44,553 nt of DNA. It comes from a virus. Of this stretch, positions 14,754 through 31,888 are shown one piece after another. The stretch is from the IMG/VR virus record IMGVR_UViG_3300028800_000156, positions 1-44,553 of that record. One strand, 5' to 3'. Below the pieces are notes generated by a model that did not search any database, had not been told where the DNA came from, and was given only the letters and a program-made list of their open reading frames with translations. The first letter of the stretch is position 1; every line of letters begins with the position of its first letter. The position numbers were made by a program, and so were the translations under genes.

Positions 14754-16069
14754 CTGGAAGTCCTAACACATTTGTAAACGGCAAGAGGGTTCTTCGCGAA
14801 GGTGATGTGACTGGAGAAGGTGGGCCTCCTGGTCCGTCAGGCCCGATTGGACCTATAGGCCCAACGGGTTCTCCCGGCCCGACTGGACCGACAGGTCCTG
14901 CTGGAGATCCGGGTCCAAATGGGCCGGCTGGATCTCCAGGTCCTACGGGACCTGCTGGTACTGATGGATCTCCAGGTTCTCCGGGACCGACTGGACCTAT
15001 AGGCCCAACGGGTTCTCCCGGCCCGACTGGTCCCACGGGACCAACAGGTTTGACGGGAGGTCCTGGCCCAACTGGTCCTACTGGACCTGCTGGTACTGAT
15101 GGATCTCCAGGTTCTCCGGGACCGACTGGACCTACTGGTTTGACCGGCGATCCTGGTTCTACTGGTTCTCCCGGCCCTACAGGTCCAACAGGTTTAACGG
15201 GGGGTCCTGGCCCGACTGGTCCTACTGGTCTTACTGGCCCAACTGGTTCTCCGGGACCGACTGGACCTACAGGTTTAACGGGGGGTCCTGGCCCGACTGG
15301 TCCGACTGGTCCTACTGGTCTTACTGGCCCAACTGGTTCTCCCGGCCCTACAGGTCCAACGGGCCCAACAGGCCCGAGTGGTGTGAACTCTCTCACCTCG
15401 GGGCACATCTATGTCGGAAATTCTTCGGGGATCGCTGCAGACGTCGCCCTTTCTGGTGACGTTGCCCTTGCGTCCAATGGGCACTCGAACGTCGTCTCGA
15501 TCTCTGGAACTACAGTCTCCGGAACGACCGGTTCTGGAAATGTCGTGTTCGACACCCTGGCATCCCTGCATGGAAACACCTCGATCGTCGGGGGAACCCT
15601 GGATCTTTCGGATTCTGCATCAGGAAAAATCAAGTTCCCCTCTACGGCATCAACATCTTCGGACGCCCACACCCTCGATGCCTATGAAGAAGGTACGTGG
15701 ACTCCGTCACTAAACCGTGTTTCTTCATACTCCCTCCAGCTTGGTTACTATACCAGGAATGGAAATATCGTCACCACCACATTCAGCATGATAAGTTCCG
15801 GTGCAGCTACTTCCGGCAACGTGACGTTCGGTGGGTGGCCGTTCGCGGCTCAGAATAATGGAACGAATGGAAGCCTCCATGCGTTCTTCTCGGCATGGAC
15901 AGGAATCACGTTGACCGCAGGCTATACGCAGCTGTCCATGGCGGCAGTAACCATATCAAACTTCCTGAGACAGAGCGGAAGTGGGGTGGCTTATTCCACG
16001 GTCAACGGTTCAGCGGTGGCGAACCCCATGGAGATACATGGCTTCGCTACCTATACGATCCCGACATAA
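14750..16069 (+). CDS. PAAR-like tip fused to a collagen-like stalk and fibre C-terminus
   Basis: 439 residues with a GTG start inside the GTGA overlap with the gp5-like gene. Residues 2-21 ([17 protein letters not shown]) look like one strand pair of a PAAR spike-tip protein. Residues 24-210 are uninterrupted Gly-X-Y triplets, mostly G-P-T and G-S-P, which should form a collagen triple helix about 60 triplets long. The remaining 230 residues are beta-rich and contain [13 protein letters not shown] and Y-Y-T-R-N-G-N-I-V, a C-terminal pattern common in phage tail fibres. The product may attach at the spike or baseplate and carry a receptor-binding or trimerisation head. Glycine codons are mainly GGA and GGT. 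Confidence 0.8.
14820..15381 (+). repeat. collagen-coding DNA repeats
   Basis: Nine-base Gly-X-Y units are repeated throughout and larger blocks recur. For example TCTCCAGGTTCTCCGGGACC appears twice, about 136 bases apart, and other blocks about 140 and 80 bases apart recur nearly unchanged. Repeats of this kind slip easily, so stalk length probably varies between relatives. Confidence 0.85.
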
Positions 16070-18205: not shown

Positions 18206-18213
18206 AATAAATA
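18206..18213 (+). promoter_or_regulatory. late promoter core AATAAATA for gp25
   Basis: AATAAATAGCAGG lies 26 bases before the gp25 ATG, which leaves a normal leader with AAGGAAT as a weak ribosome site. The rest of the divergent gap 18077-18239 shows no other clear element. Confidence 0.65.
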
Positions 18214-18239: not shown

Positions 18240-18668
18240 ATGGCGGATACGTTCAGGGTCGACAGGTACACGGCCACGGCCAAGAAGTCCGAGATCTACT
18301 CGGACTTCACCACGGACTTCACCCCCCACCCAGATACCGGGGACCTGGTGCGGTCAGTAAATGAGGATTCCGTCAAGAGATCCATGAGGAATCTCATCAG
18401 GACCAACCGGTACGAGCGCTTCTTTTCTCCGGCCAAGGGTTCGGACGTAGAGGCGACGCTCTTCGAGAACATCACCCCCCAGAGTCAAGCCAAGCTCCAG
18501 ACGGGGATCCGTAACCTCATCGAGAACTATGAACCCCGGGCCAAACTGGTGTCGGTCACGGTCGATGCATTTCCTGAGAAGAACGCATACGTCATCACCC
18601 TGGTCTTCTACACGGTCAACAAGTCCGAGCCCCAGACCCTCCAGCTTCCCCTCTACAGGTTGCGGTAA
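18240..18668 (+). CDS. baseplate wedge protein, T4 gp25-like
   Basis: 142 residues, close to T4 gp25 (132). The gp25 fold is recognisable: a short N-terminal strand pair, S-D-F-T-T-D-F-T-P-H-P-D-T-G-D-L, then V-N-E-D-S-V-K-R-S-M-R-N-L-I-R-T-N-R-Y-E-R. A region with F-E-N-I-T follows, and the final strands end L-Q-L-P-L-Y-R-L-R. gp25 initiates sheath assembly and belongs to the inner core wedge with gp6 and gp53. The TAA stop is itself the first three bases of the TAAATA late core of gp6. Confidence 0.88.
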   Translation: MADTFRVDRYTATAKKSEIYSDFTTDFTPHPDTGDLVRSVNEDSVKRSMRNLIRTNRYERFFSPAKGSDVEATLFENITPQSQAKLQTGIRNLIENYEPRAKLVSVTVDAFPEKNAYVITLVFYTVNKSEPQTLQLPLYRLR

Positions 18669-18675: not shown

Positions 18676-20472
18676 ATGGCAGCGAACTCCTCACTCGACC
18701 TCACTTCCCTAGATTTCCAGGACCTCAAGGAACGTTTCAAGACGTTCATGAAGTCCCAGGATAGGTTCAAGGACTATGACTTCGAAGGCCCGAACATCTC
18801 GGTGCTCCTCGATGTCCTCACATACAACACCTACATCAACGCCTTCAATTCAAACATGCAGATCTCCGAGGCCTTCCTGGACTCTGCACAGCTTCGCGAC
18901 TCCATCGTCTCCTTGGCGAAAGAACTCAACTACATGCCCAGGTCGTTCCGATCGGCGGTTGCGTTCGTTGACGTGACTGTTGCAACCGGAGATTCGAACG
19001 TCGCTCTCCTCACGATGCAGAAAGGTACGACGTTCACCGGTAAATCTGGTTCGAACAACTACACTTTCCAGACCGACCAGAACCTCGTGGCTTCTGGAAA
19101 CAACGGCACTTTTCTCTTCTCCAACGTAGCCCTCTATGAGGGCATCTCGGCTAACGATTCCTTCGTCATCTCATACGCCTCCGAACCGCAGAAGTTCGTG
19201 CTCTCCAACCCAAACATCGACACGCAGAGCCTGGAGGTCGTGACCATTGAGAACCAGGGCTCTGACCTCTTCAACTACCAGTTCAGTCAGACCCTCCTGG
19301 ATCTGACCAGTAACTCGACTGCTTATTTTCTCCAGGCCGTCGAGGACGGTAAGTACCAGGTGTTCTTCGGGGATAACATAGTCGGGAGGAAGCCTGCGGA
19401 CGGGTCCGTCGTCGTAGCGTCCTATCGGATCAGCTCCGGAGAACTGCCGAACGGGATCTCTAAGTTCACCCCCGACTCCACGATACAGGGATATTCAAAC
19501 GTCTTCGTGGGGACTGTGGCTTCAGCGGTAGGAGGAGCCATCTCGGAGAGCAACGAGTCCGTTCGTTTCAATGCCCCGCGGGCTTACTCCACCCAGGAGA
19601 GGGCCATCACGGACTCGGACTACGAGACCCTCCTTCGAACCACCTTCCCAGAGATAGTGGCTGTCGTCGCCTATGGTGGAGAGGAAGTCGTGCCTCCACA
19701 GTACGGGAAGGTGTTCATCTCGATCCAACTGGCTGGATTCGACGGGACGCCGGCATCCAAGGTCGCCCAGTACAAGGCTTTCCTCTCCGGTCGAAGGGCT
19801 CTCGCCATCCAACCCCAGTTCGTCGATCCTGACCATACCTACATCTCCGTCTCGACGGCCGTCACCTACAACATCAACGAGACCGACATCACGGCGGATG
19901 ACGTGACGGCATACGTCATATCTGCAATCCAGACATACAACCTCCAGGAGCTCGTGGACTTCAAGTCCACCTTGCTCTATTCCCGCTTCGTGGGAGCGAT
20001 CGACGATTCACACCCTTCCGTGGTATCGAATGAAACCGACGTTCTCGTCATGAAGAAACTGACGCCACGTTTCGGCGTGGCTCAGAACTTCAACGTCTCC
20101 TTCGGCATGTCCCTAGTTGACGACCTGGTTCCGGAAACCCGTCTCGTCCATCCGGCGAGTGCCGAGCACGCCATCTCGAGCTCCAGGTTCGTCTACAGGG
20201 GCCAGTCAGTGGTCCTGGAAGACGACGGACTCGGGGCGATCTGGCTTGCTTCGACCCGTTCGGATGGATACCACAGGATGTTCCAGGCTGGTAAGGTTGA
20301 CTATGCATCCGGTGCAGTCACCCTTTCGTCCCTCCTGGCTGATTCATATCAGGGGGACTCCATTCGTCTCTATGGCCGCCCGTCCCAAAAGGACGTGACC
20401 GTGTCTGGAAACGTCATCCTAGAGATCCCCTCCGACGAGATACAGGTTACGGTAACGGCGGCCCGCATCTGA
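18676..20472 (+). CDS. baseplate wedge protein, T4 gp6-like
   Basis: 598 residues (T4 gp6 has 660). The N-terminus has D-F-E-G-P-N-I-S-V-L-L-D-V-L-T-Y-N-T-Y, then N-M-Q-I-S-E-A-F-L-D-S-A-Q-L-R-D-S-I, L-A-K-E-L-N-Y and P-R-S. This is the conserved gp6/J-like baseplate block. Further on come A-P-R-A-Y-S-T-Q-E-R-A-I-T-D-S-D-Y and I-S-I-Q-L-A-G, also typical. gp6 forms the inner ring that holds the wedges together. Codon use is strongly C/G-ending. The stop overlaps the next start (TGATG). Confidence 0.88.
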   Translation: MAANSSLDLTSLDFQDLKERFKTFMKSQDRFKDYDFEGPNISVLLDVLTYNTYINAFNSNMQISEAFLDSAQLRDSIVSLAKELNYMPRSFRSAVAFVDVTVATGDSNVALLTMQKGTTFTGKSGSNNYTFQTDQNLVASGNNGTFLFSNVALYEGISANDSFVISYASEPQKFVLSNPNIDTQSLEVVTIENQGSDLFNYQFSQTLLDLTSNSTAYFLQAVEDGKYQVFFGDNIVGRKPADGSVVVASYRISSGELPNGISKFTPDSTIQGYSNVFVGTVASAVGGAISESNESVRFNAPRAYSTQERAITDSDYETLLRTTFPEIVAVVAYGGEEVVPPQYGKVFISIQLAGFDGTPASKVAQYKAFLSGRRALAIQPQFVDPDHTYISVSTAVTYNINETDITADDVTAYVISAIQTYNLQELVDFKSTLLYSRFVGAIDDSHPSVVSNETDVLVMKKLTPRFGVAQNFNVSFGMSLVDDLVPETRLVHPASAEHAISSSRFVYRGQSVVLEDDGLGAIWLASTRSDGYHRMFQAGKVDYASGAVTLSSLLADSYQGDSIRLYGRPSQKDVTVSGNVILEIPSDEIQVTVTAARI

Positions 20473-22916
20473 TGCGTTCAATCCCAAAGACCATCAGCAA
20501 CCTCGTCAGAAGCCAATTCCCTGATTTTTACAGGGAAAATGGCGACAACTTCATTGCTTTCGTGGAAGCATATTATCAATGGCTTGAGACCGAAGGTCCG
20601 CTCTACAACTCCCGACGTTTCATGGAGCTTGTCGACATCGATCAGACCATAGATGACTTCGTTATCCATTTCAAGAAGGCATACCTCGACGGAATCCAGT
20701 TCGATACCCTCACCGACAAGAGGCTGTTGGTCAAGAGGGTCATCGATCTCTATCGATCCAAGGGCACAGAGAGGGCAGTACAGCTCCTCTTTCGTCTCGT
20801 GTTCGCCGAGGACATCGAGCTCTACTACCCGTCCAAGGACATCTTTGCCCTGTCAGATGGTACTTGGAACGTACCGACATACCTCGAGGTGACTCGTCAG
20901 GACCGTAATTCGTCGTTCGTCGGGAAGCTCATCACCGGGGTCACGTCAGGGGCAACGGCTTTCGTCGACAGGATAGTTCGGAGGGTCGTCAAAGGCAGGT
21001 ACGTCGACGTCTTCTATATCTCTGGAGATACCCTGGACTTCCAGACCGGGGAACTCCTGAAGGTCGACGACGACCTCACCGACGTTCCTACCGTCATAGG
21101 GTCCCTCTCGGACTTCTTGGTGGTCGATGGTTCGGTTGGTTTCAAGGTCGGAGACATCGTCGACGTGCTCTCCAGATACGGTACCGGTGGAAAAGGCAGG
21201 GTCAGCCAGGTCCAGGACGTGACCGGGATCGTCTCCTTCACCCTACGCGATGGGGGATGGGGGTTCACGAACACGTCGGTAGTCCTCGTGTCCAACGCCG
21301 TGGTATCCATCTCCAACACGAGCAGCCCAGGTTTCCAGAGGTTCGAGGAGATCTCGTTCACGTGTCCTGCGAACTCCGACGTCGTCACCGCAAACCTCAT
21401 GGCCGTCTCTTCGAACTCGGTCGTGCGCATGAGCGGAGTGACGGGAAGGTTCTCTCCTGGGGAGACCATCGTGTTGGGTGATTCCGTTGAAGCCACCGCC
21501 CTCCTGGTGTCGGACTCCGTCAACTCAACCCTGTCCAACGTCACGGTGACTAACGTGGTCGGAGACCTGTCGGTCGGTCTCAGGGCCGTCGGTCAGACGT
21601 CAGGAGCTGTCGGAAACGTCGCCTCATACGACACGACCGCCGGTATCCTCAACGTCAACGGTTCGCTCACGACGGACTACACCGAAGTCCTAGGACTTCG
21701 TTCCAACACAACGGCTACGCTGACCAACATCTTCACTGGTACAGGAGCTACGTTCCGAATCGGTCGTCTAGCCAACACCGAGACCGTATTCCTCAACACG
21801 GACTCCATCGACGCCTACAGAGGGGTCGCTCTCGACGCCTCTGCCTATGGTTTCCCAGGAGACCCGTCTGCCAACGCGTCGAGCCCCCTGCTTCCAGCCC
21901 TTACCTACGAGAGCTTTGAACTCGGCACAGTCCAGACGCTGGTCGGTATCAACCCCGGCCACAACTACAACGTCTCCCCGTTCGTGTTCATCTACGAACC
22001 TTTCATCGCAGGCCTGGAGAAGAAGGACTACATCATCCAGGTCGCCAACGTTTCGGGCCACTACGTCCTGGGAGAAACCGTTACGCAGGCTCCCCCGGTG
22101 CCAGACGACTGGGCTCAGCTATCGGTGGCGGACGCCGAGGACTTTCTCTTCCAGGAAGCGGTGTACCAAGAAACCGCCGGATCGAACACTGCCGTTGGAA
22201 CTGTCCAGGGGATCACGTCAGGGATCCTGCTCGTCGAGACCGTGTCTGGGTCGTGGCAGGCCAACGACGACGTCCTCGGACTCGTCTCGTCTGCCTCAGG
22301 CAACGTCACCTCCGTGGCGACCTCCGGAGTCTTCGGTTTCGCCCAGGGTTCCATAACGGCCAAGGCCAACGGCGTCATCCACGTCAGGCGTCTCTCCATC
22401 TCCGCCGACTTCGTTGCCGGCGCCAACGTCGTCGGTAGCCTCTCCGGGGTCTCGGCGAACGCCATATCTGTCGCTGAGGATCCTGATTCTCTTCCGGCAG
22501 GCCTGAACGCAGTCGTCGTCGCCAACGTCTTTTCAGGAAACGGTTCCGTGGTCTCCCTGGACGTCGCGGCGTCGGGTCTCGGCCACGCCAACAACGAGCT
22601 CATCACGTTCACATCCCAGGATGGCCTTCGTTCCGGAACTGCTCGAACTGTTCTCGGCAGACAGGGACACGCTGAGGGGTTCTATACGTCCTCCAAAGGG
22701 TTCCTGTCCTCCGATAAATACCTCGCAGACGGGGAGTACTACCAGGACTTCTCGTATGAGATCAAGTCGAGCCTGGACGTCGACAGGTACGCCGACATGG
22801 TGAAGAGAGTCACCCACGTCGCCGGCACGAAGATGTTCGGCAGGGTCGTCAAGGTCTCTGAAGTGCAGGGGCAGGGCAACGTCGTCTCGGCGAACGTAAC
22901 GCAGACAGGAACGTGA
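20472..22916 (+). CDS. large baseplate wedge-region structural protein (gp7 position)
   Basis: 814 residues between gp6 and gp8, where T4 has gp7. The first 130 residues carry a conserved pattern of marine T4-like baseplate proteins: P-D-F-Y-R-E-N-G-D-N-F-I-A-F-V-E-A-Y-Y-Q-W-L, then F-K-K-A-Y, then D-L-Y-R-S-K-G-T-E-R-A. The remainder is beta-rich, with several modules of the form F-x-x-G-E ... T-S-G-A-x-G-x-V. Near the C-terminus is F-Q-Y-D-like D-F-S-Y-E-I-K-S, then D-R-Y-A-D-M-V-K-R-V. I could not align it to T4 gp7, so it is named by position. Translation is coupled to gp6. Confidence 0.65.
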   Translation: MRSIPKTISNLVRSQFPDFYRENGDNFIAFVEAYYQWLETEGPLYNSRRFMELVDIDQTIDDFVIHFKKAYLDGIQFDTLTDKRLLVKRVIDLYRSKGTERAVQLLFRLVFAEDIELYYPSKDIFALSDGTWNVPTYLEVTRQDRNSSFVGKLITGVTSGATAFVDRIVRRVVKGRYVDVFYISGDTLDFQTGELLKVDDDLTDVPTVIGSLSDFLVVDGSVGFKVGDIVDVLSRYGTGGKGRVSQVQDVTGIVSFTLRDGGWGFTNTSVVLVSNAVVSISNTSSPGFQRFEEISFTCPANSDVVTANLMAVSSNSVVRMSGVTGRFSPGETIVLGDSVEATALLVSDSVNSTLSNVTVTNVVGDLSVGLRAVGQTSGAVGNVASYDTTAGILNVNGSLTTDYTEVLGLRSNTTATLTNIFTGTGATFRIGRLANTETVFLNTDSIDAYRGVALDASAYGFPGDPSANASSPLLPALTYESFELGTVQTLVGINPGHNYNVSPFVFIYEPFIAGLEKKDYIIQVANVSGHYVLGETVTQAPPVPDDWAQLSVADAEDFLFQEAVYQETAGSNTAVGTVQGITSGILLVETVSGSWQANDDVLGLVSSASGNVTSVATSGVFGFAQGSITAKANGVIHVRRLSISADFVAGANVVGSLSGVSANAISVAEDPDSLPAGLNAVVVANVFSGNGSVVSLDVAASGLGHANNELITFTSQDGLRSGTARTVLGRQGHAEGFYTSSKGFLSSDKYLADGEYYQDFSYEIKSSLDVDRYADMVKRVTHVAGTKMFGRVVKVSEVQGQGNVVSANVTQTGT

Positions 22917-24709
22917 TGGACAGCACGAAGCAGCTCATCCTCAACCCCTACAGGTTGAACAACGCCGAGAGGTTCGTGGATTCCTTTACGGCGACTCCGA
23001 ATACCGTCTACTTCGTCTTTGCCGGGAAGACGACGTCCTATGCGAACACGGACACCGTAGTTCCTGCCGTCGACGATACCCTGGTGAACGGCCTCTTCGA
23101 TGCCTACCAGCAGATGGTGTTCGGCAAGCACGTCCGTCCCCAGGACGTGGCGTTCGTCGTCACCCGCCGGGACTGGGTTTCCGGTACCGTCTACGACATG
23201 TACGACGACCAGGTCGAATCACTCGAGGACAAGGCGTTCTTCGTCTGCGTCCAGGAGGATGATACCAGGTACGTCTACAAGTGCCTGGACAACGCCGGAG
23301 GGACTCCCTCCACGTCCCAACCAACCTTCTCGGATACGTCTGCAGCCGATTCCTACTACAGGACCGGAGACGGGTACCTGTGGAAGTACATGTACCAGAT
23401 CGACTCCGGGGACTTCGCGACTTTCTCCACTCCTGACTTCATCCCTGTCGTCGAGGATCCGGACGTCACGGCCAACGCCGTGTCCGGTGCCATCGACGTC
23501 ATCAGGGTCGACAAGGGGGGCTCTGGATACAACAACTACGTCTCCGGCCAGTTCAACGTCGACGACATCCAGTCCGGAGCCAACGACGTCGTCTACGGCA
23601 TCTCGTCCAGCGCCCTCTCGGCCAACCACGTCTACGACGGCTGTTGGCTTGTGGTCACATCCGGTCTCGGCGCCGGTGAATATAGGACCGTTACCGACTA
23701 CTTCGTCAATACCTCCGGTAAGTTCGTCGTCGTCGACACGGCCTTCGACGAGACCCCGGCCGCCACCTCGACCTACGAGGTCAGCCCGAAGGTCTTCATC
23801 CAGGGTGATGGCCACCAGACTTCCCAGGCCGCAGCCAGGGCTCTCGTCAACGCAGCCTCTGGAAACGCAGTCTGGGGGATCGAGATGCTTGACAGGGGGG
23901 CTGGATACCACAGGGCCAGTGCCCAGGTCCTCGTCTCAGGAACCGTCGGAGTCACGAACGCCGCCGCGCTCACCGTCATCTGTGGACCCAAGGGAGGACA
24001 CGGGGCTTCATCGACCCGTGAGCTCTACTGCTCCGCCGTGGAGGTGTCCGTCACGTTCGCCAACACCGAGTCGAACACCATCTCTACGGACAACGACTTC
24101 AGGGTCGTGGGTCTCGTCAGGGATCCCCTCTGGTCCAACGTCACGGTGACCACCGCAAACCAATCCGGCAACTTCGAGATCGGAGAGGCCGTCACACAGG
24201 CCAATACCGGGGCATCCGGTATCGTGTCCGGGACTTCCGGAGGAATCGTCCTAACGGACGTCGAGGGCTTCTTCGCTCCTGGAAACTCGACCTTCGGGAC
24301 GATCTCGGGCAACACGTCCGGAGCCACCGCACAGGCGAACCTGGTCTTCAACAACGGGTTCCAGAAGGGTTTCGAGACGTTCTCTGGTCTCTACAGATAC
24401 ACGGGCCAGCTCGAGTCCGGGTCGTTCTCCAACGACGAGGTCGTCACGCTTGGGAACACTGCCACGACCAACGCCGTCTTCCACTCCTTCCAGAACAGCA
24501 CTGTGATGTGCCTGACCCAGCAGCTTGGGGACTTCACGGTACCCAACACGATCCTGGGGACGCTGCACGGCGGCCATTTCTCCGTCACGTCCCGTCTCGA
24601 TCCCGACGTCGTCGTGGGTTCAGGCGACGTCATGTACCTGGAGAACTTGTCACCGGTATCCCGTTCCAACACCAAGTCCGAGACGATCCGCCTCGTCCTG
24701 GAGTTTTAG
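22916..24709 (+). CDS. baseplate wedge protein, T4 gp8-like, enlarged
   Basis: 597 residues against 334 in T4. N-terminal features match: N-N-A-E-R-F, T-V-Y-F-V-F-A-G-K, F-G-K ... D-V-A-F-V-V-T-R-R-D-W, then V-Y-K-C-L-D-N and D-G-Y-L-W-K-Y-M-Y-Q-I. The C-terminus S-G-D-V-M-Y-L-E-N ... E-T-I-R-L-V-L-E-F mirrors the T4 ending (S-G-E-M-I-Y-M-E-N). About 260 extra residues in between contain repeated F-x-x-G-E/S-G-A-T modules. The start is taken at the ATG overlapping the previous TGA; a GTG one codon earlier is possible. gp8 is a peripheral wedge dimer that links gp6/gp7 to the outer baseplate. Confidence 0.82.
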   Translation: MDSTKQLILNPYRLNNAERFVDSFTATPNTVYFVFAGKTTSYANTDTVVPAVDDTLVNGLFDAYQQMVFGKHVRPQDVAFVVTRRDWVSGTVYDMYDDQVESLEDKAFFVCVQEDDTRYVYKCLDNAGGTPSTSQPTFSDTSAADSYYRTGDGYLWKYMYQIDSGDFATFSTPDFIPVVEDPDVTANAVSGAIDVIRVDKGGSGYNNYVSGQFNVDDIQSGANDVVYGISSSALSANHVYDGCWLVVTSGLGAGEYRTVTDYFVNTSGKFVVVDTAFDETPAATSTYEVSPKVFIQGDGHQTSQAAARALVNAASGNAVWGIEMLDRGAGYHRASAQVLVSGTVGVTNAAALTVICGPKGGHGASSTRELYCSAVEVSVTFANTESNTISTDNDFRVVGLVRDPLWSNVTVTTANQSGNFEIGEAVTQANTGASGIVSGTSGGIVLTDVEGFFAPGNSTFGTISGNTSGATAQANLVFNNGFQKGFETFSGLYRYTGQLESGSFSNDEVVTLGNTATTNAVFHSFQNSTVMCLTQQLGDFTVPNTILGTLHGGHFSVTSRLDPDVVVGSGDVMYLENLSPVSRSNTKSETIRLVLEF

Positions 24710-24726: not shown

Positions 24727-25578
24727 ATGAAAAACACCGGCTTCGTGTACCTCTGGTTCGATCGCAAGCACCGTCGATTTTACGTGGGATCCCACTGGGG
24801 TTCCACGTCGGACGGCTACATCTGCTCTTCGAACTGGATGAAGAAGGCCCACGCCATCCGTCCCAATGATTTCAAGAGACGTATTCTTAGAAACGGCATC
24901 CCTACCAAGAAGGAGATGCTTGAGGAAGAACAGCGATGGCTTGACATGATCAAGTCTGATGAGATCAGTCCTAATTCTTCCATGCCTCGTTACTACAACC
25001 TGAGAGTCAAGGCTGCCCATTGGAGTTCTGACCCTAAAGTCTCAAAGACCATAGGCCAGAAGATCAGGGCCACCAGGATCGCCAATGGTTCGTACGTCAT
25101 CTCCGAAGAGAATAAGAGAAAGCTCATAGAGCGTAATACTGGTAGACCAGGTGGAATGAAGGGGAAACGTCAATCTGAAGAGGCTAAGGCTAAGATAGCG
25201 ACGGCCCACACCGGAATGAAACGATCTGACGAGGCCAGGAAGAACATAGCTGCAAGTCTGAGGGGTAAACCACTCTCCAAAGCACATCGAGAAGCCATCA
25301 TGGCTGGAAAGGCTGGGAAGACGTACGGAGGTTGGCACCAGACAGAAGAAGTTAAGGAACTCATCCGCCAGGCCAGGAAAGGGAATACTGACTGGAGAGG
25401 TCGAAAACATACCGAAGAGACCAAGAAAAAGATGTCAGAATCCAGGAAAGCTATGCTGCGTGACAATCCAGAAGTAATTGAACGGTTCCGTAATTCTCAA
25501 CTCGGTAGAGTATTCTCGGAAGAAACCCGTCGAAAGATGTCTGAGGCGGCAAGGAACAGAAAGAGGACAGCGGCATGA
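24727..25578 (+). CDS. GIY-YIG homing endonuclease with NUMOD3 repeats
   Basis: 283 residues from the ATG at 24727. The N-terminal nuclease domain has the GIY-YIG variant F-V-Y-L-W-F-D ... F-Y-V-G-S-H, a catalytic-type R in F-K-R-R-I-L, and a glutamate in E-E-E-Q-R-W-L. Residues 140-283 contain about six basic DNA-binding repeats of the NUMOD3 kind (K-G-K-R-Q-S-E-E-A-K-A-K-I, G-R-K-H-T-E-E-T-K-K-K-M-S, S-E-E-T-R-R-K-M-S-E-A). This is a free-standing SegA-type mobile endonuclease. Its codon use has more A/T-ending codons than the tail genes, a sign of transfer. The stop overlaps the first tagged gene as ATGA. A paralogue lies at 41117. Confidence 0.87.
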   Translation: MKNTGFVYLWFDRKHRRFYVGSHWGSTSDGYICSSNWMKKAHAIRPNDFKRRILRNGIPTKKEMLEEEQRWLDMIKSDEISPNSSMPRYYNLRVKAAHWSSDPKVSKTIGQKIRATRIANGSYVISEENKRKLIERNTGRPGGMKGKRQSEEAKAKIATAHTGMKRSDEARKNIAASLRGKPLSKAHREAIMAGKAGKTYGGWHQTEEVKELIRQARKGNTDWRGRKHTEETKKKMSESRKAMLRDNPEVIERFRNSQLGRVFSEETRRKMSEAARNRKRTAA

Positions 25579-25790
25579 AGAGCTACAATGAGTTCGTCAC
25601 CGAAGGAGTCAGGTACGCGGATGGATACGACGCTGCCCAGACCCACTACAAGGACCTGAAGAAGCACAAGAGGCTCGGCCTCAAGCACCCAGTCCTCGGG
25701 AGGATCCCAACCGGCGCCGACCTCGCTGGAGCAGAGACCGAGGTGAACAAGAGAACGTTCATTGACGTCAAGGACCTTGGAAAATCCTGA
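25575..25790 (+). CDS. tagged internal-protein candidate 1
   Basis: 71 residues beginning M-K-S-Y-N-E-F-V-T-E. This matches the capsid-targeting sequence of T4 internal proteins (M-K-T-Y-Q-E-F-I-A-E), with a (V)-x-E site at residues 8-10 where a gp21-type protease would cut. The remaining 61 residues are basic and polar, with K-D-L-K-K-H-K-R-L-G-L-K-H-P, and end D-V-K-D-L-G-K-S. No known fold. It starts in an ATGA overlap with the endonuclease, and its final A is shared with the next ATG. Inferred role: packaged in the head and injected. Confidence 0.72.
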   Translation: MKSYNEFVTEGVRYADGYDAAQTHYKDLKKHKRLGLKHPVLGRIPTGADLAGAETEVNKRTFIDVKDLGKS

Positions 25791-26422
25791 TGAAGAGCTA
25801 CATGGAGTTCATCACGGAGGCAGAGGGGCATGGCCAGGGATGGTGGCACAACACCAAGACCGGGAAGACACACGCCATCGAGAGCGAGGACCTCGGTCCG
25901 AACGGTGACCACGACGGCTGGATCGGCATACACAAGCACGCCCAGGAGCTCGGCGTCCACGCACCCCATGCCAGGGCCTTCACGCACGCCCAGTACGGAG
26001 CCATGGTGTCAGACCTCCCGAAGGAGCACCACGCCGAGGCCATGAAGATCGCCCAGAAGTTCGGTGAGGGACCGGAGAACCACTACGTTGACTTCCCGTT
26101 CAACAGGGACGACCACGCCCATGAGGAGCTCTTCCACCGAGTCCACGGGATGGAGTCCCACGAAGCCCTGAACTTCCCACACGAGGAGGCATCCCACCTC
26201 CTCAGGGTCAGGAAGTGGCCGGACGGCAATTTCTCAGTCCAGAGCCACTCACCGCAGTTCGGTTCCCACCACATCAGGCACGTCCAGAAGGTGATGGACA
26301 GGGTGAACCCAGGCGGGCGAGACGCAGAGATCCACATAGACGCCCCGTTCTCCAAGCACGGTGGTTTCAACACCACCCACCACTTCCTTATGGCTGCGAA
26401 GAAACCGGAGGACCTCTACTGA
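25790..26422 (+). CDS. tagged internal-protein candidate 2, histidine-rich
   Basis: 210 residues beginning M-K-S-Y-M-E-F-I-T-E, a good (I)-x-E processing site. The body has about 27 histidines (13 percent), including H-H pairs (K-E-H-H, G-S-H-H, T-T-H-H) and W-W-H-N-T-K-T-G-K. An N-terminal segment G-W-W-H-N-T-K-T-G-K ... H-D-G-W-I-G-I-H-K-H resembles a short module seen in other phage proteins. The histidine density suggests metal binding or pH-dependent change on release from the head. No catalytic fold is recognised. It is the largest member of the cassette. Confidence 0.72.
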   Translation: MKSYMEFITEAEGHGQGWWHNTKTGKTHAIESEDLGPNGDHDGWIGIHKHAQELGVHAPHARAFTHAQYGAMVSDLPKEHHAEAMKIAQKFGEGPENHYVDFPFNRDDHAHEELFHRVHGMESHEALNFPHEEASHLLRVRKWPDGNFSVQSHSPQFGSHHIRHVQKVMDRVNPGGRDAEIHIDAPFSKHGGFNTTHHFLMAAKKPEDLY

Positions 26423-26423
26423 C

Positions 26424-26759
26424 ATGAAGAGCTACCAGGAATTCCTAACCGAGTTTACCGACACGAACGGGGAGTTCGGCGGCGGTGGCGACGGTCCTCA
26501 CCCGGCGTCGCACGCCTTGCCCCTGTCCAAGGGATGGAAGCATACCGGAGAGTGGCTTGCCAAGGGCAACCACAGGTACATGAAGACGTTTCCTGGAAGC
26601 AGTCTCAGGGCTGGACACAAGATCTACGTCACTGCCAAGAGCGGAGGGTGGTTGCACAGAACGAGAACCGGTTCCGCCGGCGAAGGCCTCGACACCAAGG
26701 ATCTCGGGGAACACCTGGACAGGATAGAGCAGGTCGAGAAGGAACACGGCGCGCGATGA
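26424..26759 (+). CDS. tagged internal-protein candidate 3
   Basis: 111 residues beginning M-K-S-Y-Q-E-F-L-T-E, nearly the T4 targeting sequence and with a consensus (L)-x-E site. It starts one base after the stop of candidate 2. The body has a glycine run (F-G-G-G-G-D-G) and then a basic central domain (W-L-A-K-G-N-H-R-Y-M-K-T-F). Next comes a strand pair K-I-Y-V-T-A-K-S-G-G-W-L-H-R-T-R-T-G, and then a C-terminal helix (L-D-R-I-E-Q-V-E-K-E-H). The family is unknown. Confidence 0.72.
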   Translation: MKSYQEFLTEFTDTNGEFGGGGDGPHPASHALPLSKGWKHTGEWLAKGNHRYMKTFPGSSLRAGHKIYVTAKSGGWLHRTRTGSAGEGLDTKDLGEHLDRIEQVEKEHGAR

Positions 26760-27007
26760 AGTCCTACGGCCGATTCCTGGATGGATACACCGAGCAGGAA
26801 GGCGGGGTCGGTGACCACGAGATCGAGGTGAACCTCCACAACCCAGAGGGGCTGAGGTTCACCCACGCCTCCACCGTGAAGGGCAAGATGCGCCACGAGC
26901 CTGAGGCGAAGGAGCACGTCCTCCGAGTCGAGGCGTGGATGGACTCGCATCCAGAGCACGGCCGTCACGGGCCGTGGAAGGCTACCGACTACAGGTGGCA
27001 GTCGTGA
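26756..27007 (+). CDS. tagged internal-protein candidate 4, degenerate site
   Basis: 83 residues beginning M-K-S-Y-G-R-F-L-D-G. The first half of the tag is conserved, but the expected glutamate at position 10 is glycine, so it may be packaged without trimming or use another site. The body is His/Glu-rich (V-N-L-H-N-P-E-G, M-R-H-E-P-E-A-K-E-H, S-H-P-E-H-G-R-H-G-P-W) and ends Y-R-W-Q-S. It overlaps candidate 3 (ATGA) and candidate 5 (GTGA). Confidence 0.66.
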   Translation: MKSYGRFLDGYTEQEGGVGDHEIEVNLHNPEGLRFTHASTVKGKMRHEPEAKEHVLRVEAWMDSHPEHGRHGPWKATDYRWQS

Positions 27008-27411
27008 AGTCCTACGGACAGTTCCTGGCTGAGTCCGTTCCTGACAAAGATCACTGTTCGATCTCAGCCATCTCCCACGTCACGGGAAGAAGCGAAGATG
27101 ATGTGTGGGAACACGCCAAGAAACACTGGAAACCTGGATATGGGATGAACAGCGGAGGTATCCACCATACCCTCAAGGCCCTAGGTCACAGGTATGGTAA
27201 GTTTCGTCACGACCTGACGTATCGAACTGATTCCTCCAACCATACCATCTCATCCCTGAGACCTCTGCTAGACGCTGAGCCCCCTCACAAGAAGTTCATC
27301 ATAGGTACGAAGGGACACGCCATGTCCTATGTCGGGAAAGAACTTAAGGATATAGCCTCGGTCGGAGGTGGGACGAAGATTGGTTCTGTGTACGAGGTCG
27401 ACCCCTCTTGA
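27004..27411 (+). CDS. tagged internal-protein candidate 5, cysteine-protease-like
   Basis: 135 residues with a GTG start, beginning M-K-S-Y-G-Q-F-L-A-E (site L-A-E). The body reads H-C-S-I-S-A-I-S-H-V-T-G-R-S, then W-K-P-G-Y-G-M-N-S-G-G-I, L-K-A-L-G-H-R-Y-G-K, and later I-I-G-T-K-G-H-A-M-S-Y-V. This follows the layout of small phage papain/C39-like proteins: a Cys at a helix start, G-x-x-x-x-x-x-L-x-x-L-G, then G-H with hydrophobic strands. The candidate nucleophile is C18 and the candidate histidine is in G-H-A. Enzyme activity is unproven. An injected protease would be a plausible early host-takeover factor. Confidence 0.68.
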   Translation: MKSYGQFLAESVPDKDHCSISAISHVTGRSEDDVWEHAKKHWKPGYGMNSGGIHHTLKALGHRYGKFRHDLTYRTDSSNHTISSLRPLLDAEPPHKKFIIGTKGHAMSYVGKELKDIASVGGGTKIGSVYEVDPS

Positions 27412-27428
27412 GCCTCCCGGCCGGACTG

Positions 27429-27434
27429 TAAATA
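27429..27434 (+). promoter_or_regulatory. late promoter core TAAATA in front of the DUF4815 tail gene
   Basis: TGTAAATAGGCCCATGC: the core ends five bases before the ATG at 27440. The 12-base string TAAATAGGCCCA is repeated exactly at 41078. No ribosome site lies between core and ATG. Confidence 0.7.
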
Positions 27435-27439
27435 GGCCC

Positions 27440-30400
27440 ATGCAGGACACAGATCTCTCCGTACCGCCCTACAACGACTCGTTCGATCCCGACAAGAACT
27501 ACGTGAGGGTGCTCTTCAAGCCCAGCGTATCGACACAGGTGCAGGAGCTCAACGGACTCCAGTCCATGCTCCAGAACCAGGTCGAAAAGTTCGGGGACGT
27601 CGTCCTGCAGCGTGGGACCGTCGTCGAGGGCTGCTCCTTCGTCTACTACCCCAGGTACTCCTACGCCAAGATCCTGGACCTACAGGACGACGGCGAACCA
27701 GTCGTCATGGCCAACTACACCGGCCTCTTCACCCGCAACTCCCAGAACCTGGTCGCCACGGTCCTGTCGACGTCGACCGGCTTCGAGAGCCAGGACCCAG
27801 ACCTCAACACCCTCCACCTCAGGTACCTGAACTCAGGTCTCGACGGCAACACCTCCGCGTACTCCTCGGCAGACGTCCTCACCGTCTACGACTCCGACCA
27901 GTCGGTCTGGGCCGTCGACGTGCCGGTCGGAGGCGTCGGTTCAGGCTTCTCCAACACGGATCCCCTGACCTTCCTCCCGGCCATCGCCGTCTCGGTCACG
28001 TCGTCCAACACCTTCTCGAACGGAGAGCTGGTCACTCAGGAGACCACCCTCGCCAGGGCCCAGGTCGTCCAGGTCAACTCCACGGCCGTGGCGAACACCC
28101 TCGTCCTCAAGCTCCGCCCCCTGGCCGTGGACCTCCAGAACACCTCCCTCACCTCCGCGGCGTGGACGTTCTCGGCCAACCTGAGCATCACGTCCAACAC
28201 CACGGGTTCCGTGGCCGTCGTTACCGAAGTCTACGGGTCAGGTGGTGCGGGTCAGGTCGTCACCGACGGCACGGGCAGGATCCAGGAGACGGTCGTCACC
28301 GACAGGGGAACCGGCTTCATCGTCCCTCCCACCGCCGTGGTCAAGTCGGCGTCGGCCACGGCCGACGTCTCCACCGAGAACCTGCTCGCCGCTCGCAACT
28401 ACCTCTGCCAGCTGACTGTCGCCTCCGTCGCCAACTCAACCGGGGACGGCTACGCCTTCGGCGTCTCTTCCGGTACGGCGTACCTCAAGGGCTTCTTCCT
28501 GCACGTCGACGCCCAGGTCGTCGTCGTCTCAAAGTACTCCACGGATCCCGACGGTCTCGTCGTCGGCTTCGACTCCACCGAGACCATCGTCACGGCCTCA
28601 GTCGACCCGACCCTCCTCGACAACGTCACGGGGACGACGAACTCCCAGGCTCCGGGTGCCGACCGCCTCCAGGTGACCCCGACACTGAAGGTCCTGTCGG
28701 CGTCCGACGCCGCGGCCAACTCGGACTTCCTCCCCCTCACCGCCTTCTCCAACGGACAGCCTTACCTCCAGAACCAGGAGACCCTGTTCTCGACCGTAGG
28801 GGAAGAGATGGCGAGGCGGACCGACGATACCTCCGGGGACTTCGTCCTCGACCCATTCCTGGTGGCGACGCAGACGACGCCCGGCAACAACGAGAGCCAG
28901 ACGTTCCTGGTGACCGTCGACCCGGGGTACGCCTACATCTCAGGCCAGAGGGTCAGGACCTACGACAACTTCCAGGTGGAAGTACCGCAGGCGACCACGA
29001 CCCTCTCCGTTCCTGCGACCAGGATCGGCGTCCAGTTCGGCAACTACGTCGACGTCCGTGAGTACGGCGGTGCTTTCCTCCACACCACCGGCGACGCCGT
29101 GTCCGTCCGTGACGCCGCGGCGTCGTTCCTCTCCAACACCTCCAACGCCGGACTTGCTCCGACCGGAGCCGGCTCCGAGATCGGAAAGGCCCGAGTCAGG
29201 TCCGTCAAGCACCTCTCCGGAACGCCTGGAACCCCTGATGCGGTCATGCGCGTCTACCTCTTCGACGTCCAGATGGATCCCGGGAAGAACTTCAGGGACG
29301 CCCGAAGCCTCTTCTACTCCGGAGCCGCGGCGACCGGAGTCGCCGACCTCGTCCAGACCTACGACGCCACCACCAACACCTCGATCTCCAGGATCTCGAA
29401 CACGGCCGGGTCCAGGATGGTCTTCCCGGTCGGACCGTCGGCCACGGCCGACGCCTCGAACGTCACCTTCCAGTACCGGAACCTCAGGACCGACCTGACC
29501 TGCAACACCTCCGGATCCGTCTCCGTCCAGCTCACCGGAGCCGAGACGCACCCCTACGCCTTCGGCTCCGCCCTGACGTCGGAGCAGGAGAGGGACCTCG
29601 TCCTCGTCCCGCTCGCCAACGGCCAGGCGTCGTCAAACCTCTCCGGATCCCTCGGCATCTCCTCCACGGGGAACACGGTCACCGGTACGTCCGGCGACTT
29701 CCTCACCACCCGACGCGCCGGCGACTACCTCATGGTCTGGTCGAATACGACGGTCCAGGACGTTCGAAGGGTCGTGGGCGTCGGTTCCGGCTCGTCCCTC
29801 ACCGTCGACAGGCCCTTCACCGTCTCGAACACCTCCGCCAACGGGGTCCAGTTCTTCCCGGCCTACGTCCCCGTCTCCATCTGGGACGACCCCGACAGGT
29901 CGGCGAACGTCGACGTCACTGGCCAGCTCCTCACCGTGGACATCGGCACGTCGCTCTCCGCGAACGTCGCCTGTGCCCTCACCCACTCCGTCCTGGTCTC
30001 GTCCCAGTCCCCGGTCACGAAGACCAGCAACCGCTCCGCCCTCGTCAGGATCCAGACCTCGAACAACGCCGGGGGAACGACCGGTCCTTGGTGCGTCGGT
30101 CTCCCCGACGCCTTCCGCATGGTCTCGGTCCACATGTCGAGCAACGCCGCAACGGTGAACCTCGCAAGCCAGGACGTGACGAACTCCTTCTACGTCGACC
30201 ACAACCAGAACCCGGACTACCTGGACCTGGGGTACCTGTACCTGAAGCCCAGGACGGGGGTCACAGTCGACGCCAACACGGCTCTGCTCGTCGAGCTCGA
30301 CGTCTTCACCGTCTCCGCCAACGGCGCCGCCACCGTCACGTCCTACCCAATCGACGACTCCCAGGACTACGACGCCCTCCGCTCCGGAACGTCCGTGGCT

Positions 30401-31888
30401 ACCCTGGAGCTGCCTGAGACCTGGGACAGGCTAGGTACCTACCGGGACCTCTCCGAACAGCTGGACTTCCGCCCCCACGTCCAGGCCACGGCGAACGTCA
30501 CGGCCAACGTCGCCCTCTCGACCCTGAACCCTCCGGCTACCTCCTACGCCACCCGCTTCGGCAACACGGCGAACCCCGCGAACAAGGCCTACTTCCCGGA
30601 CCCCGACACCCTGGCGCAGGCCGACGTGTCCTACTACCTCCCCAGGATCGACAGGGTCGTCGTCGACTCCACCTCGGCCATCAGGGCCGTCCCAGGACTG
30701 CCTGCACAGGTACCGTCGGCTCCTCCCCAGCCTTCCGACTCCATGACCATCGCCCTCCTCAACGCCCCGGCCTTCCCCACGGTAGGGCAGAGGAAGGACC
30801 AGGAGTTCTCGGACCTCCTCGACAGGAAGGTAGCGTCCCAGGGCCGGATGACGACCCGTCGGGCCACGGACCACGCCGTCACGCTCTTCGCCGATCCGAC
30901 CTCAGGCCCTGGGGGATCCCAGCCGTCGGGATACACGATGGCGCAGATCGGCACGCTGGAGCGCCGGATCGCCGCCCTCGAGTACTATCAGTCCCTGTCA
31001 GGCCTCGAGAGCCAGGTCCAGGCACAGCAGATCCCGTCGTCGGTCTACCCGGCGTCCCTCCGGTTCAAGTACGGCTTCCTCGCCGATTCCTTCCAGGACA
31101 ACTCCCTCACCGACACCCAGAGCCCGGAGTACACCGCCGGGTTCCAGGACGGGTGGGTCGTGCCTCGCCTGGACCTGGAGAACTACGGCGGTGAGTTCAA
31201 CGTCGCCAACGCCTCGACGCAGGCCCTCGTCACCGGCCGCCTCGTCACCCTCCCGTACGTCGAGAAGGTGCTGGTCTCGCAGGGCGCGGCCACCGCCGGG
31301 AAGGCCGCCAACACCCAGGCCAACACGACCCAGGCCAACACCGTCTCGCACCCCGTCGCCGTCGACTACTCCGGCGTCATGATGCCGACCAACAGGGTCC
31401 TGGTCGTCTCAAGGATCGTGGGGGATCCCAACACGTATACGAAAGGGAACCCCAGCTCAGCTCCGGCCAAGAACAAGGTCTCGGTCACCGGCGACGAGAT
31501 GTCGGTGGCCGACCAAGCCATCACCATCTCCTGTAGGGGACTGAAGCCAAACACGAAGCACGTCTTCAGCTTCGGCGGCCAGGACAGGTCGTCCTCGGTC
31601 GTCGTCCCTGGAGGAGCCATGGGAGGTTCGATAATTACTGACGGCTCAGGGAAGTGCACGTTCACGTACTACTATGGATCAGGCATCGTCGACAGGTCAA
31701 CCGACTTCCAACAGTCCCAGTCAACTCTGAACAACGTCGTCGGCAACATGAAGGCCAGCCTCGTCTCTGCGGATGGCACCAGCCATGCGTCCTGCTCCCT
31801 CGGGGTCGTCTCTGGGTCGGTGTCGCTCCCGAACGTCGGCCTGAACGTCGTCAACCTTCATATCGTCAATCAATCCAGGACACTCTGA
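27440..31888 (+). CDS. very large DUF4815-type tail/baseplate protein
   Basis: 1482 residues from the ATG at 27440; the open frame begins upstream, but the late promoter and the conserved N-terminus set this start. It opens D-L-S-V-P-P-Y-N-D-S-F-D-P-D-K-N-Y-V-R-V-L-F-K-P, then Q-V-Q-E-L-N-G-L-Q-S-M-L-Q-N-Q-V-E-K-F-G-D. That is the diagnostic start of DUF4815, found in long tail proteins of marine T4-like phages. The rest is beta-rich and Ser/Thr/Asn-rich, with a helical linker near 1180 (M-A-Q-I-G-T-L-E-R-R-I-A-A-L-E-Y-Y) and a final immunoglobulin-like domain. It likely takes the place of T4 gp9/gp10 at the baseplate rim as fibre-attachment protein. Confidence 0.78.
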   Translation: MQDTDLSVPPYNDSFDPDKNYVRVLFKPSVSTQVQELNGLQSMLQNQVEKFGDVVLQRGTVVEGCSFVYYPRYSYAKILDLQDDGEPVVMANYTGLFTRNSQNLVATVLSTSTGFESQDPDLNTLHLRYLNSGLDGNTSAYSSADVLTVYDSDQSVWAVDVPVGGVGSGFSNTDPLTFLPAIAVSVTSSNTFSNGELVTQETTLARAQVVQVNSTAVANTLVLKLRPLAVDLQNTSLTSAAWTFSANLSITSNTTGSVAVVTEVYGSGGAGQVVTDGTGRIQETVVTDRGTGFIVPPTAVVKSASATADVSTENLLAARNYLCQLTVASVANSTGDGYAFGVSSGTAYLKGFFLHVDAQVVVVSKYSTDPDGLVVGFDSTETIVTASVDPTLLDNVTGTTNSQAPGADRLQVTPTLKVLSASDAAANSDFLPLTAFSNGQPYLQNQETLFSTVGEEMARRTDDTSGDFVLDPFLVATQTTPGNNESQTFLVTVDPGYAYISGQRVRTYDNFQVEVPQATTTLSVPATRIGVQFGNYVDVREYGGAFLHTTGDAVSVRDAAASFLSNTSNAGLAPTGAGSEIGKARVRSVKHLSGTPGTPDAVMRVYLFDVQMDPGKNFRDARSLFYSGAAATGVADLVQTYDATTNTSISRISNTAGSRMVFPVGPSATADASNVTFQYRNLRTDLTCNTSGSVSVQLTGAETHPYAFGSALTSEQERDLVLVPLANGQASSNLSGSLGISSTGNTVTGTSGDFLTTRRAGDYLMVWSNTTVQDVRRVVGVGSGSSLTVDRPFTVSNTSANGVQFFPAYVPVSIWDDPDRSANVDVTGQLLTVDIGTSLSANVACALTHSVLVSSQSPVTKTSNRSALVRIQTSNNAGGTTGPWCVGLPDAFRMVSVHMSSNAATVNLASQDVTNSFYVDHNQNPDYLDLGYLYLKPRTGVTVDANTALLVELDVFTVSANGAATVTSYPIDDSQDYDALRSGTSVATLELPETWDRLGTYRDLSEQLDFRPHVQATANVTANVALSTLNPPATSYATRFGNTANPANKAYFPDPDTLAQADVSYYLPRIDRVVVDSTSAIRAVPGLPAQVPSAPPQPSDSMTIALLNAPAFPTVGQRKDQEFSDLLDRKVASQGRMTTRRATDHAVTLFADPTSGPGGSQPSGYTMAQIGTLERRIAALEYYQSLSGLESQVQAQQIPSSVYPASLRFKYGFLADSFQDNSLTDTQSPEYTAGFQDGWVVPRLDLENYGGEFNVANASTQALVTGRLVTLPYVEKVLVSQGAATAGKAANTQANTTQANTVSHPVAVDYSGVMMPTNRVLVVSRIVGDPNTYTKGNPSSAPAKNKVSVTGDEMSVADQAITISCRGLKPNTKHVFSFGGQDRSSSVVVPGGAMGGSIITDGSGKCTFTYYYGSGIVDRSTDFQQSQSTLNNVVGNMKASLVSADGTSHASCSLGVVSGSVSLPNVGLNVVNLHIVNQSRTL

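What the first reader, a model, noticed from the sequence alone, without database searches (positions are those of the whole stretch)
25575..27411. Cassette of five tagged proteins: likely head-packaged, injected effectors
Five consecutive, mostly overlapping genes start M-K-S-Y-x-x-F, then (V/I/L)-(T/A/D)-(E/G). The tag DNA is also similar (ATGAAG-(AG/TC)-C-TAC). T4 internal proteins IPI, IPII and IPIII start M-K-T-Y-Q-E-F-I-A-E, a capsid-targeting sequence cut by gp21 after (I/L)-x-E, and are injected with the DNA; IPI blocks the GmrSD restriction enzyme. Four of the five here keep a cleavable site, and candidate 4 has lost the glutamate. The bodies are unrelated: small basic, His-rich (about 13 percent), basic mixed, His/Glu-rich, and cysteine-protease-like. 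I infer an exchangeable arsenal of injected anti-host factors placed in a late baseplate operon.
Basis: partly seen in the sequence, partly recalled or inferred. Interest (0 to 1): 0.93.

Follow-up and report, generated by a model that had tools for sequence, protein, structure and literature searches.

The report
Five head-targeted injected phage proteins
A T4-like virus known only from environmental DNA carries five consecutive genes whose unrelated proteins all begin with the ten-residue address label that T4 uses to load proteins into its head and inject them with its DNA, so they are probably ready-made weapons against host defences, although nobody has shown this for these five.

Summary
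Five adjoining genes (25575-27411) start M/V-K-S-Y-x-x-F-(V/I/L)-x-(E/G). They are the only such starts in the window, and none appear by chance in 300 randomised windows. The bodies are unrelated. The tag matches the capsid-targeting sequence (CTS) of T4 internal proteins: the residues that T4 genetics assigns to targeting (4 and 7) are Y and F in all five. The processing residues (8 and 10) fit the gp21 site in three, but are V8 in tag 1 and G10 in tag 4.

The window is a fragment of a T4-like myovirus. In nearly all relatives gp8 is followed directly by a VrlC-like gene. Here the junction holds a homing endonuclease plus the five genes. Two relatives carry GIY-YIG endonucleases there without tags.

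The same tag sits on about 110 unrelated body families in T4-like contigs, including SAM-lyase-family, acetyltransferase and zeta-toxin-kinase domains. Glu10 and Ala/Ser11 are enriched where the search left them free, as expected for a cleaved leader.

Most likely the five are head-packaged, injected internal proteins: a new member of a known kind. Anti-defence function is inferred. No gp21 gene can be checked in this fragment, and the 'cysteine protease' reading of gene 5 is unconfirmed.

The parts
18206..18213 (+). T4-type late-promoter-like site (AATAAATA) before gp25; likely start of the late transcript that runs through the cassette
   Evidence: 9 one-mismatch TATAAATA matches in the window versus 2.9 expected, 0 of 100 shuffles reach 9
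18240..18668 (+). gp25 baseplate wedge gene
   Evidence: PF04965 2e-12
18676..20472 (+). gp6 baseplate wedge gene
   Evidence: phrog_219 1e-152
20472..22916 (+). gp7 baseplate wedge gene
   Evidence: phrog_17744 3e-171
22913..24709 (+). gp8 baseplate wedge gene, left border of the inserted block
   Evidence: phrog_438 1e-86
24727..25578 (+). GIY-YIG/NUMOD3 homing-endonuclease-like gene, first gene of the inserted block; lower GC (0.50) than its neighbours
   Evidence: phrog_314 2e-22, NUMOD3 1e-18 (5 repeats); the GIY-YIG model itself is below cut-off; GC
25575..25790 (+). tagged gene 1 (MKSYNEFVTE|G), 71 aa, mature pI 9.6
25790..26422 (+). tagged gene 2 (MKSYMEFITE|A), 210 aa, 13% His
26424..26759 (+). 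tagged gene 3 (MKSYQEFLTE|F), 111 aa
26756..27007 (+). tagged gene 4 (MKSYGRFLDG), 83 aa; targeting residues kept, processing glutamate lost
27004..27411 (+). tagged gene 5 (GTG start, (V/M)KSYGQFLAE|S), 135 aa; body matches phrog_3754 (unknown function)
27427..27434 (+). late-promoter-like site (TGTAAATA) 5 bases before the VrlC-like start
27440..31888 (+). VrlC-like large structural gene, right border of the inserted block
   Evidence: phrog_358 5e-158; homologous to annotated VrlC/VlrC genes

Best explanation
The five genes encode internal head proteins of a T4-like myovirus. Each carries a ten-residue capsid-targeting sequence that takes the protein into the scaffolding core of the prohead. 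The phage's prohead protease (gp21 type) then cuts after residue 10, except in protein 4, which should be loaded but stay uncut. The mature proteins are packed with the DNA and injected, and most likely act at once against host defences or on host machinery. The block sits next to a homing endonuclease at a junction that is almost empty in relatives, so it was probably gained or swapped by recombination, and it is read as the 3' end of a late baseplate transcript. Shown here: tag, operon layout, unrelated bodies, insertion site, widespread tag with cleavage signature. Inferred: packaging, cleavage, injection, anti-defence role, route of gain.
For: Tag match to T4 ipII and ipIII (MKTYQEFIAE), read from the T4 record. 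Published T4 genetics: residues 4 and 7 of the IPIII tag direct targeting, 8 and 10 direct processing, and Asp at 10 blocks processing but not targeting (PMC9026906). Here 4=Y and 7=F in 5/5; 10=E in 4/5. The same tag lies on 181 ORFs in about 110 body clusters, nearly all in T4-like contigs. With position 10 left free, 32 of 38 open tag hits in 29 other records have Glu there. With position 11 free, 73 of 110 are Ala/Ser against 13% background, and conservation ends there. Tagged cargo includes families named internal head/virion protein and SAM-lyase, GNAT, zeta-toxin and GH108 domains. Peptidase S77 occurs in all seven named T4-like phages tested plus S-PM2, P-SSM2 and RB49. T4 Ip1, Ip2 and Ip3 each block a different Type IV restriction enzyme (PMC12373910).
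Against: No gp21, gp22 or gp23 gene was seen on this fragment (gp21 tested by S77 search), so the loading and cutting machinery of this virus is not in view. Tag 1 has Val at position 8, tag 4 lacks Glu10, and residue 11 is Phe in tag 3 and Tyr in tag 4. Two mature proteins are not basic. No body has a functional assignment. The tag also starts T4 gp61.1, which I could not place in the virion.
Confidence: 0.8

Rival explanations
1. The proteins are head-packaged through the tag, but their job is structural or in assembly (core filling, DNA condensation, head shape) rather than attack on host defences.
For: T4 IPIII mutants show head-assembly defects (PMC9026906). Three of the five mature proteins are small and basic. 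None has an effector domain.
Against: T4 Ip1-3 are each specific anti-restriction proteins (PMC12373910). Bodies are unrelated and the block is absent at this site in relatives, as expected for accessory weapons rather than structural parts. Other tagged proteins carry enzyme domains.
Confidence: 0.17
2. The shared start is a relic of gene duplication or a translation-initiation feature; the proteins are not targeted to the head.
For: Tags 1-3 share the rare serine codon AGC and tags 4-5 share TCC, so tag copies may be related by descent.
Against: Bodies are unrelated, so whole-gene duplication fails. The conserved positions are amino-acid positions matching a known targeting signal and its cut site, across contigs of very different base composition.
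Confidence: 0.06
3. The block is passenger DNA brought by homing-endonuclease activity at the gp8/VrlC junction, with decaying genes of no use to the phage.
For: It lies directly after a GIY-YIG/NUMOD3 endonuclease, and the junction is invaded by endonucleases in two relatives. Tag 4 has lost its processing residue.
Against: All five frames are intact and tightly coupled, four tags keep Glu10, and GC3 of genes 1-4 (0.75-0.85) is close to the structural genes while the endonuclease is lower at 0.56. The endonuclease insertions in the two relatives bring no tagged genes.
Confidence: 0.06
4. The proteins are tail or baseplate components, as their place between gp8 and the VrlC-like gene would suggest.
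For: Genomic position within the baseplate and tail gene block.
Against: No counterpart at this place in any of more than 40 relatives with the junction in view; the tag is a head signal.
Confidence: 0.04

Closest known systems
T4 internal proteins IPI (Ip1), IPII (Ip2), IPIII (Ip3) with their capsid-targeting sequence
   Same: Ten-residue N-terminal tag with the same key residues (K2, Y/F4, F7; I8 and E10 in IPII and IPIII); small unrelated bodies; several per genome; accessory genes of a T4-like phage.
   Different: Ser instead of Thr at residue 3; five in one overlapping operon; placed between gp8 and the VrlC-like gene rather than near genes e or 57; bodies without detectable homology to any T4 internal protein; host unknown.
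Internal-protein hotspot of T-even phages (Repoila et al. 1994, cited in PMC3012670 and PMC12373910)
   Same: Variable set of tag-sharing genes, thought to be swapped in an arms race.
   Different: Different genome position; adjoining gene is a homing endonuclease; virus far outside the T-even group (gp6 about 38% identical to the best-listed isolated phage).
Tandem tagged-gene arrays in other IMG/VR contigs (e.g. L161, L139, L181)
   Same: Three to five tagged genes with unrelated bodies within a few kilobases on one strand.
   Different: Not at the gp8/VrlC junction; different bodies.
Phage P1 DarA/Hdf defence-against-restriction proteins
   Same: Head-associated proteins of a phage that protect incoming DNA (PMC12810830, abstract).
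   Different: Not compared by sequence here; P1 had no match to the tag pattern and no S77 protease.

Membership tests
T4-type internal proteins with a capsid-targeting sequence | N-terminal tag with aromatic residue 4 and Phe 7 (targeting) | tested here: met
   Y4 and F7 in 5/5; residue roles from PMC9026906
T4-type internal proteins with a capsid-targeting sequence | Processing site: hydrophobic residue 8 (I/L in T4) and Glu 10 | tested here: inconclusive
   Tags 2, 3 and 5 meet it; tag 1 has Val8; tag 4 has Gly10 and fails
T4-type internal proteins with a capsid-targeting sequence | Bodies unrelated to each other beyond the tag | tested here: met
   113-protein alignment A1 with mean column identity 5%
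T4-type internal proteins with a capsid-targeting sequence | Encoded by a T4-like myovirus | tested here: met
   gp53, gp5, gp25, gp6, gp7, gp8
T4-type internal proteins with a capsid-targeting sequence | gp21-type (Peptidase S77) prohead protease in the same genome | not testable with these tools
   Absent from the 44.5-kb fragment but present in all ten named T4-like phages tested
T4-type internal proteins with a capsid-targeting sequence | Present in the mature head, cut after residue 10, and injected | not testable with these tools
   Needs mass spectrometry of virions
T4-type internal proteins with a capsid-targeting sequence | Basic mature proteins | tested here: inconclusive
   Proteins 1, 3, 5 pI 9.0-9.6; 2 and 4 about 6
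Inhibitors of Type IV restriction enzymes (GmrSD) | Inhibits a GmrSD-type enzyme, or homologous to Ip1-3 | not testable with these tools
   No homology to internal-protein families at E 0.001; activity needs an assay
Papain-like cysteine peptidase (gene 5) | Recognisable peptidase domain | tested here: inconclusive
   No Pfam, NCBIfam or PDB sequence hit; phrog_3754, unknown function, 2e-7; model pLDDT 38
GIY-YIG/NUMOD3 homing endonuclease (24727-25578) | NUMOD3 repeats and similarity to phage homing endonucleases | tested here: met
   NUMOD3 1e-18 above cut-off, phrog_314 homing endonuclease 2e-22
GIY-YIG/NUMOD3 homing endonuclease (24727-25578) | GIY-YIG catalytic domain | tested here: inconclusive
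   PF01541 E 0.11, 13.3 bits against a cut-off of 22.6

The most novel reading that the evidence does not exclude
The capsid-targeting tag is a general address label across T4-like viruses of sea and fresh water, where it loads a large interchangeable set of effectors, including enzymes such as SAM lyases, acetyltransferases, ADP-ribosyltransferase-like and zeta-toxin-like proteins, for injection at the moment of infection. In this virus the label has been assembled into a five-gene weapon operon beside a homing endonuclease.
Probability: 0.55. Interest if true: 0.75.

Novelty: new member of a known kind. Interest (0 to 1): 0.5.

Why it matters
T4's three internal proteins were recently shown each to disarm a different Type IV restriction enzyme. 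If a readable ten-residue label marks such cargo throughout T4-like viruses, injected counter-defence proteins can be listed straight from metagenomes without knowing their folds. This cassette gives five new candidates in one operon. The wider tag set makes the old question of what T4-like phages inject directly testable.

Tried and rejected
Close relatives of gene 5 and gene 2 in IMG/VR and GenBank phages, and of gene 5 also in PLSDB plasmids and GTDB genomes: none. phrog_3754 in 48 other records: none. AlphaFold of genes 2 and 5 from single sequences: mean pLDDT 44 and 38, too poor for a fold search, so none was run. PDB sequence searches of genes 2 and 5: nothing meaningful. Relatives of the window's endonuclease by pattern scan: none, although L017 carries a visibly similar one at the same junction. 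The profile of tagged SAM-lyase-like proteins found no PDB match, so that label rests on Pfam PF23780 alone. Tag as a marker of all T4-like phages: rejected, since S-PM2 and RB49 have none by the E10 pattern. Absence of the tag in phages without S77 was seen in phiKZ, SPO1, P1 and N4, but four genomes are too few for a firm association.
Full report
What is there. The window is a 44,553-base viral record, almost certainly a fragment. It holds T4-like tail genes: gp53 at 6072, gp5 at 13986, gp25 at 18240, gp6 at 18676, gp7 at 20472 and gp8 at 22913. The gp6 protein is about 38% identical to the best-listed isolated phages (Stenotrophomonas DLP_6, Caulobacter Cr30, Sinorhizobium phiM12), so this is a distant T4-like lineage of unknown host. 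After gp8 come a GIY-YIG/NUMOD3 homing-endonuclease-like gene (24727-25578), then five genes that all start M/V-K-S-Y-x-x-F (25575, 25790, 26424, 26756, 27004), then a VrlC-like structural gene at 27440. Starts and stops overlap by 4, 1, 4 and 4 bases, with a 1-base gap between genes 2 and 3.

More than chance. A six-frame scan finds exactly these five tag starts in the window and no other. The tag's DNA pattern occurs five times in the window and never in 300 random sequences of the same dinucleotide make-up. The bodies after residue 10 do not align above shuffled controls, apart from two marginal pairs. Much of the DNA similarity of the tags follows from codon bias. The exception is the serine codon AGC, used in tags 1-3 although only 9% of serines in the structural genes use it; tags 4 and 5 use the common TCC. 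I read this as a sign that tags were copied or recombined as units; that is inference.

The tag is the T4 capsid-targeting sequence in kind. From the T4 record itself, ipII and ipIII start MKTYQEFIAE and ipI starts MKTFKEFTST. Published mutational work on IPIII places targeting mainly at residues 4 and 7 and processing at residues 8 and 10, and reports that Asp at 10 stops processing but not loading (PMC9026906). All five proteins here have Y4 and F7. Four have E10. Protein 4 has G10 and, by analogy, should be loaded uncut; tag 1 has V8, where the T4 site has I or L.

Independent support from other viruses. From those and the other fetched loci I collected 181 tagged ORFs in about 110 body clusters. 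That scan fixed position 10 for most of the set, so I tested free positions. In 29 other records searched with position 10 open, 69 matches were read; 38 had a frame open for at least 50 codons, and 32 of these had Glu at position 10. These hits include some related phages, so the binomial value printed there overstates independence. Position 11, free in every search, is Ala or Ser in 73 of 110 clusters against 13% downstream, and information falls to background from position 12. That is the profile of a leader cut between 10 and 11. Among 113 proteins scanned (108 reference bodies plus the five), PHROGs named 'internal head protein' or 'internal virion protein' appear repeatedly. Pfam finds the SAM-lyase family in six members (best 7e-21, well over cut-off), and GNAT acetyltransferase, zeta toxin, GH108, CHAP and DUF6267. 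The Cr30 tagged protein has a sub-threshold PARP match (0.0018). SAM-cleaving enzymes are known phage counter-restriction enzymes (PMC7877911). The SAM-lyase label rests on Pfam only; a PDB profile search found no match.

Machinery. Peptidase S77 (the gp21 family) is found in all seven named T4-like phages first tested, in three more (S-PM2, P-SSM2, RB49), and in eight of nine tag-bearing IMG/VR records above 100 kb, but in none of phiKZ, SPO1, P1 or N4, which also lack the tag. The window's own fragment has none; at 44.5 kb that says nothing. Two S77 phages (S-PM2, RB49) have no tag by the E10 pattern, so the tag is common but not universal.

Where the cassette came from. In the isolated relatives inspected, gp8 is followed directly by the VrlC-like gene. 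In the fetched contigs where gp8 could be followed to its end, the gap is 7-46 bases with two exceptions; in the rest gp8 aligned only in part, and the estimated gap is at or below zero. The exceptions are L017 (858 bases) and L050 (542 bases), and each gap is filled by a GIY-YIG-type gene; the L017 one closely resembles the window's endonuclease (read by eye). In the window the gap is 2,730 bases. So this junction is a repeated landing site for homing endonucleases, and the five tagged genes are an addition on top of one. The endonuclease has lower GC3 (0.56) than genes 1-4 (0.75-0.85); gene 5 is also lower at 0.60. The block may therefore be a composite.

Expression. Sites resembling the T4 late promoter (TATAAATA) occur more often than in any of 100 shuffles. 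Several sit just before late genes: 4918, 13974, 18206, 27427 and 41076. The cassette has no promoter-like site of its own in the scans. It most likely belongs to the transcript from 18206 through gp25-gp6-gp7-gp8, with a fresh start before the VrlC-like gene. Late expression is when head filling happens. This is inferred from sequence.

Likely mechanism. Tag binds the scaffold core; protein is enclosed; prohead protease removes the tag; mature protein is injected with the DNA. Function after injection is not visible in the sequences. The best guide is T4, where Ip1, Ip2 and Ip3 each block a different GmrSD-type Type IV restriction enzyme and share only the leader (PMC12373910), and where loss of ipIII costs T4 the ability to infect a particular host strain (PMC9391042). 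I put head targeting at about 0.8 and an anti-defence role, given targeting, at about 0.7.

Novelty. The principle of tag-sharing, diverse, injected internal proteins is established, including the suggestion that the CTS lets T4-like phages load various proteins (PMC9026906; PMC3012670). Arrays of three to five tagged genes exist in other contigs. This is a new, unusually compact and unusually placed member of a known kind. I found no paper in the held library that surveys the tag in environmental T4-like viruses or links it to SAM lyases; most subscription journals are not in that library.

Noticed in passing
L097:3911-4396 and related loci (L084, L100, L115-L117, L120, L122, L153, L182, L192): A capsid-targeting-like tag on SAM-lyase-family proteins (PF23780, best 7e-21) in many environmental T4-like contigs: a candidate injected counter-restriction enzyme.
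   Followed up: partly
L017:17287-18096 and L050:19086-19598: GIY-YIG-type endonuclease genes, apparently of different kinds, sit at the same gp8/VrlC junction in two relatives, so the junction is a repeated homing target.
   Followed up: partly
L250:2019-2336 (Caulobacter phage Cr30, AGS80945.1): Tagged 106-aa protein with a sub-threshold match to the PARP catalytic domain (0.0018); T4's injected Alt is also an ADP-ribosyltransferase.
   Followed up: no
L254:1467-1631 (T4 gene 61.1): T4 gp61.1 (54 aa, hypothetical) starts MKTFKEFIKE, a capsid-targeting-like tag, next to the anti-toxin genes 61.2, 61.4 and dmd.
   Followed up: no
L237:921-1523 and L252:2692-3312: Tagged proteins of about 200 aa with an N-terminal DxDxT motif typical of HAD phosphatases (by eye; no Pfam hit at 0.01).
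   Followed up: partly
window 4918, 13974, 18206, 27427, 41076 (+) and 4936, 736 (-): T4-like late-promoter-like octamers lie just upstream of many gene starts, although the genome has 58% GC.
   Followed up: partly
window 41117-41623: A second GIY-YIG-like/NUMOD3 gene near the tail-fibre end of the window.
   Followed up: no
window 14750-16069: Long collagen-like GPTGP repeat protein between gp5 and gp25, probably fibre-like.
   Followed up: no
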